64,000 nt of DNA from Ptychodera flava (Eukaryota > Hemichordata > Enteropneusta > Ptychoderidae), in contig NC_091929.1 in NCBI RefSeq assembly GCF_041260155.1, positions 41,481,744 to 41,545,743 of the forward strand, in the 5' to 3' direction. Below the pieces are notes generated by a model. It worked only from the letters and a program-made list of their open reading frames with translations. It was not told the DNA's origin and did not search any database. Every line of letters starts with the position of its first letter. The first letter of the stretch is position 1. This document shows positions 5,000 through 24,461 of the stretch, piece after piece. Both the position numbers and the translations under genes were made by a program.

Positions 5000-5501
5000 A
5001 TGGCGAAGACCGCTCCCTGGTTGTTTTCGACTGCAGTCACAACTTTTTTGTTTTGTGGTTGGATTGTCGGCCTCGCTCAACCGGGATTGATCCGAAGTGA
5101 GGAATGTGTCTCTGGTGATAATTATTGTCACAGATCTGACGTCTGCGCTTATGTGTTTACGTTCAACGTTGACGGAGATGGCACCTGCCCTGACCTTAAC
5201 AAGACGCTGGTCGAGTTTGGCGACGTTATAGCCGATGTCGAACGACTTGAATCGAAAATAGTTGATGTGTGGACGGAAATGAGAGCTTTGCGGAAAGAAA
5301 AGACGAGCAATCATGATCTGATCTATCATCAGAATGAAATCGTCCAAAATCTGCAAAATACCGTGTACACCATGTATGATTCGTTTACTGAACAGATTTC
5401 AAGTCTTGTACAACAGCTGAAAGACAGAGACTCAGAAATCAACCATCTACAGGAACAGATAGCCATTATAACAGGAACAAGTCAGACGAGTCAAAGTGAT
5501 G
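5000..5501 (+). CDS. Pentraxin gene A exon 1: signal peptide, Cys-rich segment, coiled coil
   Basis: The start ATG at 5000 has an A at -3 and a G at +4. Residues 1 to about 27 form a signal peptide (hydrophobic core TTFLFCGWIVGLA). Residues about 33-63 hold four cysteines (EECVSGDNYC, DVCAYVF, GTCPD), which could form inter-chain disulfides. Residues about 65-155 are heptad-rich and predicted coiled coil, ending in a Ser/Thr linker. The exon ends in phase 1 at a GTAAGT donor (5502). The layout matches long pentraxins, where an N-terminal coiled coil drives oligomerisation. Copy B differs by only two residues. Confidence 0.85.
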
Positions 5502-23500: not shown

Positions 23501-24461
23501 CATAGAGGGGGACGTTCTTCTGAAGATAGAAGACGTATGCTGTAAGTGAAAAGTTCAGTCCTCTAGCGAAATTGCACCCTAATGTCACATAAAATGAACT
23601 CTTATACCCTTCATAAGGCACAGGTTCGTACATCAGACAAACCAGCAACTAAATCTCAACTAAACCTCATATTTGATGTCTTGTAATTGTTCCAGTGCTC
23701 TATTCCCAACGATAAAACGGGTAAATTAATTATTCCGAATGAAGGTATTTTCATGGTCGCTTTTCACGGTCTCGTTATTAAGGTCATCAAAATCGACATT
23801 ACGATAAGTTAAATTTTTCGCCTAATTTGTTATACTTTTTCTTCCAGTGTCGCATATCTCGAATCGCACGATTGTTGTACTGCGGAGCCCGAATACCAAC
23901 GTAATTGTCTCCAAACTGATACCTGAGATGTCCAGTCTGACTGCTTGCATTTGGGCAAAAATCGTCGAGGTTGGACACAATGCAGCTCTGGTGTCCTATG
24001 CTGCATCTGAACACGACAATGAATTTTTAATCCACTATCTTGGCGAAGGCTTCCACGTCTACATCAGCAACGCCCTGCTAATCATCAAAGCCCCGCCTAT
24101 CGATGATGGTGCATGGCATCACGTGTGCTTCACGTGGTCGTCAGGCGATGGTCACTGGCAATATTACCACAATGGCGTCCTTACCAAGAGTGGTCGTGGG
24201 TTCCAATCCGGTAATGGGGTGAAAAGCAGTGGCTATTTAGTTTTAGGCCAGGAACAGGACACTGTCGGTGGAGGATATGACACAAACCAGGCACTCGTTG
24301 GTAGCTTAACACATTTCAACATGTGGTCAAGGGTACTTCCAGCAGACGTAATTTCAGAATTAGAAAGAAATTGTTCCCTTGTTGGCGATGTATTTGCTTG
24401 GAATATTGGAGATCTTTATATGGAAGGTGACGTTTCCATGGAGATAGGGGACATTTGTTGA
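5000..24461 (+). CDS. Multi-pentraxin gene, copy A (8 exons, seven pentraxin domains)
   Basis: Exons: 5000-5501, 6182-6778, 7099-7708, 8477-9088, 20064-20675, 21527-22138, 22930-23541, 23848-24461 (TGA). Every junction is phase 1 with canonical GT-AG sites. Exon 1 gives a signal peptide, Cys-rich segment and coiled coil; exons 2-8 each give one whole ~200-residue pentraxin domain. The intact design would be about 1,590 residues, far longer than classical short (~220) or long (~400) pentraxins. Each domain carries the H-x-C-x-[ST]-W-x-[ST] signature and the DN, EQD and Q calcium ligands of the CRP/SAP family. Likely role: a secreted, oligomeric, Ca2+-dependent recognition lectin, possibly immune. 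Exon 3 has two 1-base losses, so a full-length product is unlikely unless that exon is skipped. Intron 4 holds a 10.7 kb LTR element. Whether all domains join in one mRNA is unknown. Confidence 0.8.
5502..6181 (+). other. Intron 1 of pentraxin gene A
   Basis: GTAAGT donor, and an acceptor in a pyrimidine-rich ...CCCTGTTGCAG at 6180-6181. It contains the (TA)n(TG)n microsatellite at 5952-6074 and nothing else I can support. Confidence 0.7.
5952..6074. repeat. Compound (TA)n(TG)n microsatellite
   Basis: About 54 bases of TA repeat followed by about 69 bases of TG repeat, in intron 1 of pentraxin gene A, about 110 bases before the exon 2 acceptor. Copy B keeps it at 50043-50150 with different lengths. 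Confidence 0.95.
6182..6778 (+). CDS. Pentraxin gene A exon 2: pentraxin domain 1
   Basis: A 597-base symmetrical 1-1 exon encoding one pentraxin domain of 199 residues. Landmarks in order: first disulfide Cys in TACIWVK, calcium-site DN in HDNEFLIYY, signature HHVCITWSS with the second Cys, EQD in GQEQDIVGG, and Gln in NQALVGS. It ends with two further cysteines in GDCS and KDVCG. Open throughout in both copies. It is five residues shorter than the other domains because it lacks the short N-terminal stretch before the first strand. Confidence 0.9.
7099..7708 (+). pseudogene. Pentraxin gene A exon 3: pentraxin domain 2, frameshifted
   Basis: Pentraxin exon of 610 bases instead of 612. It reads normally through TACIWVK, HDNEFLIHY and HHVCITWSS, then loses one base near 7496 (just before the GQEQD calcium motif) and another near 7676, relative to the intact copy B exon at 51173-51784. 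Splice sites are preserved (acceptor 7097-7098, donor GTAAGT at 7709). Because it is a 1-1 exon, skipping it would keep the rest in frame. Local assembly error is an alternative explanation for single-base gaps. Confidence 0.8.
7709..8476 (+). other. Intron 3 of pentraxin gene A
   Basis: About 770 bases between phase 1 exons. The acceptor is in TTTGTCTGTCAG at 8475-8476. No repeat or other gene is seen. Confidence 0.7.
8477..9088 (+). CDS. Pentraxin gene A exon 4: pentraxin domain 3
   Basis: 612-base symmetrical exon, fully open, one 204-residue pentraxin domain. It has TACIW-type Cys (SACIWVK), HDNEFLIHY, HHVCITWSS, GQEQDAVGG, NQALVGS and the trailing GDCS / EDVCG cysteines. The donor GTAAGT is at 9089; the LTR element begins only 47 bases further on. 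Its sequence is closest to domain 1 in the part around the calcium motif. Confidence 0.9.
9136..9385 (+). repeat. 5' LTR of the Ty3/gypsy-like element
   Basis: Begins TGTGGTGAAT and ends TTTTCTACA. It is about 98% identical to the 3' LTR. Directly downstream (9387 on) is a TGGCGCTGCGAG stretch in the position of a tRNA primer-binding site; the tRNA was not identified. Confidence 0.9.
9386..10713 (+). other. Leader region of the LTR element
   Basis: About 1.3 kb between the 5' LTR and the first recognisable product, long for a Ty3/gypsy leader. Apart from the candidate primer-binding site at its left end I see no coding signal in it. Confidence 0.6.
10714..11320 (+). pseudogene. HhH-containing product at the head of the LTR element (fossil)
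   Basis: The N-terminus (VNLNTCNIRELKSLPGVGKK) is a textbook helix-hairpin-helix DNA-binding motif of the ComEA/PsbU kind. After an acidic Ser-rich stretch it carries three imperfect repeats of a QS-Y-P-IED motif (about 11150-11290). A helix-hairpin-helix module upstream of Gag is unusual. Function in the element is unknown. Confidence 0.6.
11830..12900 (+). pseudogene. Gag region with CCHC zinc knuckle (fossil)
   Basis: A capsid-like retrotransposon Gag segment (about 11990-12520, with Trp-rich helices such as WRTFFMKFVRYA and a RMEKRFG motif) is followed by a single CCHC knuckle of the form C-x2-C-x4-H-x4-C (near 12840-12885). Confidence 0.75.
13110..16960 (+). pseudogene. Pol region: protease, reverse transcriptase, RNase H, integrase (fossil)
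   Basis: Recognisable in order: an aspartic protease (VVDTAAEVTII, about 13110-13420); reverse transcriptase (about 13960-14640, with FLDD at the catalytic site); RNase H (about 14800-15260, DTDASD and DALSRRP); and integrase (about 15900-16960, with an H2C2 zinc-binding module near 15960-16090 and a catalytic core with VHLDFLGP, FTDQG and SANGQVE motifs). This gene order defines Ty3/gypsy. The region is broken in several places. Confidence 0.85.
17050..17210 (+). pseudogene. PHD finger downstream of integrase (fossil)
   Basis: The Cys4-His-Cys3 pattern YCIC...MVQCDSC..WFHSECVG...FYCPNC is a clear PHD finger. PHD fingers read histone H3 tails. At the end of an integrase it would occupy the place of the chromodomain in other Ty3/gypsy lineages, suggesting chromatin-guided integration (inference). 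Confidence 0.8.
17340..19395 (+). pseudogene. Accessory region: zinc-finger-like motif and TatD-DNase-like domain (fossil)
   Basis: Downstream of pol. A low-complexity N-terminal part has three tandem copies of an AMEEKPSSV motif (about 17790-17960). A short Cys2-His2-like motif (CPVTGCREV...HCLKRH) lies near 18000-18060. The following stretch (about 18440-19290) resembles TatD metal-dependent deoxyribonucleases: VAVGVHPS, GPVGLDRSG, VILHIVG, VLHSFSGS, LLLESNSPH and a terminal NARQLY helix match the order of TatD landmarks. I am fairly confident of the family. A role in the element (DNA processing or host defence evasion) is speculation. Confidence 0.6.
19575..19826 (+). repeat. 3' LTR of the Ty3/gypsy-like element
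   Basis: 252 bases, TG...CA, matching the 5' LTR at about 98%. It is preceded by a purine-rich AGGGGAGGAG tract (19565-19574) in the polypurine-tract position and followed by the AGAG target duplication. Confidence 0.9.
20064..20675 (+). CDS. Pentraxin gene A exon 5: pentraxin domain 4
   Basis: 612-base symmetrical exon, open. It has TACIWVK, HDNEFLIHY, HHVCITWSS, GQEQDAVGG, NQALVGS and terminal GDCS / EDVCC. It is strongly similar to exon 3 over its N-terminal half (shared NIVVSKPIPELVAVTACIW), so exons 3 and 5 are recent duplicates of each other. Acceptor 20062-20063, donor 20676. Confidence 0.9.
20676..21526 (+). other. Intron 5 of pentraxin gene A
   Basis: About 850 bases. The 3' end (ACATTCTTTGTGTCTCAG) closely resembles the end of intron 3, supporting duplication of an exon pair. 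No other feature is seen. Confidence 0.6.
21527..22138 (+). CDS. Pentraxin gene A exon 6: pentraxin domain 5
   Basis: 612-base symmetrical exon, open in copy A. First Cys in SGCIWVN, then HDNEFLIHY, HHVCITWSS, GQEQDTVGG, SQALVGS and terminal cysteines in GYCS and EDVCC. In copy B this exon is split by a LINE. Acceptor 21525-21526, donor 22139. Confidence 0.9.
22139..22929 (+). other. Intron 6 of pentraxin gene A
   Basis: About 790 bases, AT-rich, with a poly-T acceptor tract ending at 22929. Nothing else is recognisable. Confidence 0.6.
22930..23541 (+). CDS. Pentraxin gene A exon 7: pentraxin domain 6
   Basis: 612-base symmetrical exon, open. TACIWVQ, HDNEFLIHY, HHVCVTWSS, GQEQDAVGG, NQAMVGS, then GDCS and EDVCC. 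Copy B has a single-base insertion in it. The third, decayed array at 31.9-32.5 kb carries a close relative. Confidence 0.9.
23848..24461 (+). CDS. Pentraxin gene A exon 8: terminal pentraxin domain 7
   Basis: Terminal coding exon: acceptor CTTCCAG at 23846-23847 (phase 1), stop TGA at 24459-24461 where the other exons have a donor. TACIWAK, HDNEFLIHY, HHVCFTWSS, GQEQDTVGG, NQALVGS, then NCS and GDIC. Open in both copies. It closes the protein with no transmembrane segment, consistent with secretion. Confidence 0.9.

What the first reader, a model, noticed from the sequence alone, without database searches (positions are those of the whole stretch)
5000..24461. A single gene encoding a signal peptide, coiled coil and seven pentraxin domains
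Seen: seven consecutive ~612-base exons, each a whole pentraxin domain with HxCxTWxS signature and DN/EQD/Q calcium ligands, preceded by one signal-peptide/coiled-coil exon, all in phase 1. Known: pentraxins normally have one domain per chain and assemble as pentamers or decamers. Inference: a chain with up to seven domains, oligomerised through a coiled coil, would be a highly multivalent Ca2+-dependent recognition protein of unusual design.
Basis: partly seen in the sequence, partly recalled or inferred. Interest (0 to 1): 0.75.

Follow-up and report, generated by a model that had tools for sequence, protein, structure and literature searches.

The report
Acorn-worm multi-pentraxin exon array
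An acorn-worm gene strings together seven exons that each encode a whole pentraxin (a calcium-dependent recognition domain) behind a secretion signal and a coiled coil; the array is real and old, but this copy has a frame break in one exon, and similar multi-pentraxin chains are predicted in other animals.

Summary
The array is real. The window is Ptychodera flava (hemichordate) or near-identical. At 5000-24461 lie one signal-peptide/coiled-coil exon and seven pentraxin exons, all phase 1, with AG/GTAAGT borders and a terminal TGA. The domains match Pfam Pentaxin, keep the calcium ligands, and show dN/dS 0.08-0.22 in 21 of 21 pairs, exon 3 taken from the second copy. The finding leaves out: (1) exon 3 here is 610 nt and out of frame, so no unbroken seven-domain frame exists as assembled; (2) a second copy (49102-63025) has other breaks and a LINE in exon 6; (3) database models join exons 1-6 (P0001) and late exon 7 to 8 (P0030), supporting one multi-domain chain. 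Such chains are not unique: 9 domains in Saccoglossus, 8 in a coral, 5 in a lancelet, 5 in a collinear P. flava paralogue, apparently from separate expansions. Ten searches of an open-access library found no paper on them. Most likely product: a secreted, coiled-coil-joined, multivalent calcium-dependent recognition protein. Splicing of all seven, oligomer and ligand are inferred.

The parts
5000..5501 (+). Exon 1: hydrophobic N-terminus (signal peptide), Cys-containing segment, coiled coil (167 aa), ends phase 1
6182..6778 (+). Exon 2: pentraxin domain (type A), 597 nt
7099..7708 (+). Exon 3: pentraxin domain (type B'), 610 nt, out of frame in this copy
   Evidence: the open equivalent is 51173-51784
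8477..9088 (+). Exon 4: pentraxin domain (type A')
9133..19826 (+). Ty3/gypsy-type LTR retrotransposon in intron 4, LTRs 98.0% identical over 255 columns, absent from copy 2; carries a TatD-like ORF
20064..20675 (+). Exon 5: pentraxin domain (type B)
21527..22138 (+). Exon 6: pentraxin domain (type C); Q instead of D at one calcium-ligand position
22930..23541 (+). Exon 7: pentraxin domain (type D)
23848..24461 (+). Exon 8: terminal pentraxin domain (type E), TGA where the other exons have the donor
24527..24532 (+). ATTAAA, candidate polyadenylation signal, starting 66 bases after the stop
29309..29909 (+). Remnant pentraxin exon (exon-2-like, frame broken)
31898..32497 (+). Exon-7-like pentraxin exon, open, donor GT changed so that it reads into a stop; identical to residues 15-214 of database model P0031
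49102..49603 (+). Second copy, exon 1
50258..50854 (+). Second copy, exon 2
51173..51784 (+). Second copy, exon 3 (open)
52552..53163 (+). Second copy, exon 4
53447..54060 (+). Second copy, exon 5 (614 nt, out of frame)
54958..60118 (+). LINE inserted within exon 6 of the second copy (borders approximate to a few bases)
60119..60689 (+). Second copy, exon 6, part 3' of the LINE
61495..62107 (+). Second copy, exon 7 (613 nt, out of frame)
62412..63025 (+). Second copy, exon 8

Best explanation
The locus is one gene of a Ptychodera family of multi-pentraxin proteins. It encodes a secreted chain: a signal peptide, a coiled coil, then a row of up to seven pentraxin domains (order A-B'-A'-B-C-D-E) joined almost without linkers. 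The coiled coil is expected to join two or more chains, so one particle would carry many calcium-dependent binding faces and could hold repeated ligands on microbes or mucus by avidity. Shown: exon array, phases, domain identity, ligand residues, excess of synonymous change, joined database models, predicted fold of the domains. Inferred: full seven-domain splicing, oligomer, calcium binding, ligand, and an immune or mucosal role.
Against: No version seen has all eight exons open. No transcript was available. pTM is 0.32 and pLDDT falls below 50 at the domain joints, so the model gives no reliable arrangement of the domains; the coiled-coil helices themselves are only at about 48-67 over residues 71-140 and lower at their ends. 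The other model, P0002, failed at mean pLDDT 39.2. No evidence on ligand.
Confidence: 0.66

Rival explanations
1. The locus is a decaying copy: the frame breaks are true mutations, and the working member of the family is the five-domain paralogue (P0002) or another gene of the family.
For: Copy 1 is broken in exon 3, copy 2 in exons 5, 6 (LINE) and 7; the last nine residues of P0001 leave the exon-6 frame and P0030 starts only late in exon 7. The region between holds a broken exon.
Against: The copies differ more at synonymous sites (Fisher p 1.6e-6 pooled), though the test cannot date the constraint and the excess is weaker in the exons that carry breaks (exons 3, 5, 6, 7: 17 of 531 synonymous, 20 of 1845 nonsynonymous) than in exons 1, 2, 4, 8 (13 of 512, 9 of 1801; sums). 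Apart from the LINE, the five length differences between the copies are single bases, some beside short runs of one base, as read errors would be. Exons 1, 2, 4 and 8 are open in all versions seen.
Confidence: 0.22
2. The pentraxin exons are a menu for alternative splicing: symmetrical phase-1 exons are skipped in various sets, so most products carry one or a few domains.
For: All six internal pentraxin exons are symmetrical (exon 3 in its open form), and 27 of 28 forward joins stay open at the junction codon.
Against: Database model P0001 joins five domains in order, and the paralogue has five in a collinear order. No splice data were available either way.
Confidence: 0.1
3. About the second copy only, and compatible with the best explanation: it is not a second gene but the other haplotype laid down in tandem by the assembler, so the locus is one polymorphic gene.
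For: 97.7% identity over 9.1 kb including the neighbouring region, with transposon presence/absence differences. The database version matches copy 2 at 100% in exons 1 and 3 and also holds the middle exon, P0031.
Against: A true tandem duplication of about 44 kb would look the same; the window is too short to see both borders.
Confidence: 0.5
4. Separate single-domain genes each with its own start.
For: Each domain is a whole exon.
Against: No in-frame Met before exons 3-8 in 6 of 6; within 600 bases after exons 2, 3, 4, 5 and 7 no AATAAA or ATTAAA, two AATAAA after exon 6. Models join exons.
Confidence: 0.02

Closest known systems
P. flava multi-pentraxin paralogue P0002 (1033 aa, uncharacterized)
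   Same: Five tandem pentraxin domains, each grouping with one exon type here in the same order
   Different: Five domains; its text begins with a hydrophobic leader directly before domain 1, with no coiled-coil part
Predicted multi-pentraxin chains P0003 (Saccoglossus, 9), P0043 (Oculina coral, 8), P0005 (Branchiostoma, 5)
   Same: Tandem pentraxin domains in one predicted chain
   Different: Their domains form their own clades; P0043 also has a C-type lectin Pfam match; their N-termini do not look like exon 1 by eye, not tested further
Neuronal pentraxins NPTX1/NPTX2/NPTXR (long pentraxins)
   Same: Nearest solved relatives by sequence and fold; N-terminal coiled coil then pentraxin domain (architecture recalled)
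   Different: One pentraxin domain per chain (P0034 and P0037, one each)
CRP, SAP and Limulus heptameric SAP-like pentraxin
   Same: Fold and sequence relatives; calcium ligands (recalled numbering)
   Different: Single-domain chains that make rings from separate subunits (recalled; entry titles say pentameric, heptameric); CRP Phe66 (recalled) falls on His or Tyr here by counting from DN
Alpha-neurexin ectodomain (tandem LNS domains)
   Same: A chain of several domains of the same general fold; top whole-chain Foldseek match
   Different: Whole-chain TM about 0.15 and rmsd about 30 A, so only the bead-on-string plan is shared; not pentraxins
Tandem F-type lectins with 1-5 lectin domains; F-type lectins expanded in hemichordates and cephalochordates (PMC5712786, passages seen)
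   Same: Multivalency by tandem lectin domains; expansion in the same animal groups
   Different: A different lectin family with its own fold

Membership tests
Pentraxin family (PF00354) | Profile match above the curated cut-off | tested here: met
   7 of 7 domains (exon 3 from copy 2), 105.6-127.1 bits against a cut-off of 25
Pentraxin family (PF00354) | Signature H-x-C-x-[ST]-W-x-[ST] (recalled) | tested here: met
   7 of 7, exon 3 from copy 2
Pentraxin family (PF00354) | Calcium ligands (CRP numbering recalled): D60, N61, E138, Q139, D140, E147, Q150 | tested here: met
   All but position 147 in 7 of 7; position 147 is D in 6 and Q in exon 6
Pentraxin family (PF00354) | Pentraxin jelly-roll fold | tested here: met
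Pentraxin family (PF00354) | Cyclic oligomer | not testable with these tools
   No assembly prediction or biochemistry
Long pentraxins (NPTX, PTX3) | Signal peptide and N-terminal coiled coil before the pentraxin domain | tested here: met
   Hydrophobic N-terminus and heptads, helices 66-100 and 104-147 at pLDDT about 48-67 over 71-140; no dedicated signal-peptide or coiled-coil predictor was available
Long pentraxins (NPTX, PTX3) | One C-terminal pentraxin domain | tested here: not met
   Seven exons here, five domains in P0001

The most novel reading that the evidence does not exclude
Tandem pentraxin chains arose separately in several animal lineages because one chain can form a closed or partial pentraxin ring by itself, with the coiled coil then joining rings. 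The five-domain arrays in P. flava and lancelet, and the 5+4 grouping in Saccoglossus P0003, would then be single-chain rings, and the seven-domain form here a larger ring or a ring with spare domains, giving each face its own ligand specificity in a fixed order.
Probability: 0.1. Interest if true: 0.75.

Novelty: new variant of a known kind. Interest (0 to 1): 0.46.

Why it matters
Pentraxins are textbook examples of recognition by rings of identical single-domain chains. Arrays in which different pentraxin domains are fixed in order in one chain, apparently evolved more than once, would show another route to multivalent recognition in animals without antibodies, and give natural material to ask what the ring itself contributes.

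Tried and rejected
Tried: the search of the window's own genome failed, as none is held. An AlphaFold2 model of the five-domain paralogue P0002 came out at mean pLDDT 39.2 and pTM 0.24 and was not used. The model of P0001 (pTM 0.32) gives folded domains but no reliable arrangement, so the ring idea stays untested. Exon 1 matches nothing in Pfam above the curated cut-offs among the 16 weak matches listed, and its best PDB sequence match has E 0.55.

Rejected: 'separate genes', for lack of starts; 'seven domains unique to this gene', as longer predicted arrays exist. Multi-stretch hits in bacterial or unnamed metagenome proteins look LamG-like by their Pfam lists and were not counted as pentraxin chains. 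P. flava P0004 (8 stretches) has no GQEQD in its text and is not counted as a calcium-ligand chain. The protein searches scored only the roughly 8000 candidates sharing most words, and one search listed 120 of 361 hits, so multi-pentraxin chains may be missed.

Literature: ten searches of open-access full text. Searches found 0 papers; one search listed 20 of 68 and one search listed 15 of 29; the others listed all they found (7, 1, 2, 4, 2, 3). No listed title or abstract start is about tandem pentraxin chains. Passages were read in PMC12549020, PMC5712786, PMC8590396, PMC9210306 and PMC4595640; none describes one. No whole paper was read; subscription journals were not searched.
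Full report
What is there. The window encodes, on the + strand at 5000-24461, one exon with a hydrophobic N-terminus and heptads and seven exons that each hold a whole pentraxin domain. Each internal exon is flanked by AG and GTAAGT and joins in phase 1; the last exon carries TGA at the place where the others have a donor, with ATTAAA starting 66 bases on. Pfam Pentaxin matches seven of seven domains (exon 3 taken from the second copy) at 9e-37 to 3e-30. The nearest solved structures by sequence, tested with the exon-5 domain, are neuronal pentraxins 1 and 2. 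The signature, DN, GQEQD and later Q are in 7 of 7; position 147 (CRP numbering, recalled) is D in six and Q in exon 6.

What the finding leaves out. Exon 3 of this copy is 610 nt and out of frame, so the chain as assembled stops in exon 3. A second copy lies at 49102-63025, 97.7% identical over 9.1 kb to the first including the flank. It has exon 3 open, but exons 5 and 7 out of frame and a LINE inside exon 6. Between the copies lie a broken exon-2-like remnant and an open exon-7-like exon whose donor is changed so that it reads into a stop. A 10.7-kb LTR retrotransposon fills intron 4 of the first copy only.

Which organism and what models exist. A protein search gives a Ptychodera flava protein of 1169 aa, 99% identical over 73% of the query (P0001): exons 1-6 joined in order, with exons 1 and 3 identical to copy 2; its last nine residues leave the exon-6 frame. 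P0030 of the same species joins the late part of exon 7 to exon 8, and residues 15-214 of P0031 are the middle exon. These are predicted proteins; I saw no transcripts. Taking copy 1, copy 2 and the database models together, each exon is open in at least one version but no version, as it reads, has all eight open. The single-base nature and differing places of most breaks fit either read errors or recent decay.

Is it functional? Among the seven exons (exon 3 from copy 2) dS is 0.64-2.90 and dN/dS 0.08-0.22 in 21 of 21 pairs. Between the copies, 30 synonymous changes in 1045 sites stand against 29 nonsynonymous in 3644 (ratio 0.28, Fisher p 1.6e-6; codons with length differences and the LINE-cut start of exon 6 left out). 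The excess is weaker in exons 3, 5, 6 and 7 (17 of 531 against 20 of 1845) than in exons 1, 2, 4 and 8 (13 of 512 against 9 of 1801), which is a point for partial relaxation. On the whole this supports long selection for the protein, against simple old decay. Exons 3-8 have no in-frame Met before them, so they depend on an upstream exon. Of 28 forward joins only exon 3 to exon 5 makes a stop, so a transcript with exon 3 should not skip exon 4 alone.

Coiled coil. The best 28-residue heptad stretch of exon 1 (126-153) was reached by 0 of 1000 shuffles; windows of 21, 35 and 42 residues by 64, 1 and 7 of 1000. This is a home-made test. The model gives two helices, 66-100 and 104-147, at moderate to low confidence.

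Relatives. I counted domains in the 153 proteins held after three searches; the third listed 120 of 361 hits and two of the searches scored only part of the candidates. Of 153, 114 have one long stretch, 22 two, 9 three, 1 four, 3 five, 2 eight, 1 nine and 1 none; many of those with two to four are bacterial or metagenome LamG-like proteins. Animal chains: Saccoglossus P0003 with 9, Oculina coral P0043 with 8, P. flava P0004 with 8 (diverged, no GQEQD), and P0001, P0002 and Branchiostoma P0005 with 5 each. In a tree of 66 domains, exon 2 pairs with domain 1 of P0002, exons 3 and 5 group with domain 2, and exons 6, 7 and 8 with domains 3, 4 and 5. Exon 4 is sister to exon 2 plus domain 1 (99/94), and exon 3 to the exon-5 group (98/94 for the latter). 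The seven-exon order is thus A-B'-A'-B-C-D-E: an A-B block was doubled, by the tree before the split from P0002, which would then have lost one block. The arrays of Ptychodera (this family), Saccoglossus (P0003, P0006, P0007), lancelet (P0005 and P0045) and coral (P0043) each form their own supported clades, which suggests separate expansions. Cautions: 15 of 63 inner branches are open, the program warned of long branches meeting (Pfla8, Skow2ctl, lancelet with NPTX), and gene conversion within genes could give the same picture.

How it most likely works. The coiled coil joins chains, and each chain presents several calcium-dependent faces, so the particle binds repeated ligands by avidity. 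The steps from sequence to domain fold are shown; splicing of all seven exons, oligomer, calcium binding and ligand are inferred. An immune or mucosal role follows from the family, not from data here.

Novelty. The domains are ordinary pentraxins, but the plan departs from long pentraxins in domain number, and ten searches of an open-access library showed no paper about such chains. It is a new variant of a known kind, shared in outline with predicted proteins of other animals.

Noticed in passing
18023-19395: An ORF pair matching TatD-related DNase (PF01026, E 3e-15 and 5e-9, in two frames) lies between the integrase part and the 3' LTR of the gypsy-type element: a retrotransposon that seems to carry a TatD-like nuclease gene.
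   Followed up: partly
3-1900 and 43927-45725, - strand: A duplicated minus-strand coding region; the two copy-1 pieces tested have no Pfam match at E 0.001, and the second copy is split into more frames.
   Followed up: partly
31898-32497: An exon-7-like pentraxin exon seems to have become terminal by loss of its donor: database models P0031 and P0044 both end with the residues this reading gives.
   Followed up: partly
5000-5501: The Cys-containing stretch before the coiled coil in exon 1 recalls the N-terminus of angiopoietin-like proteins (from memory; no profile above cut-off supports it).
   Followed up: no
34491-35312, - strand: Long simple-sequence arrays between the two copies give spurious ORFs of repeated YMYVC and YLSI.
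   Followed up: no
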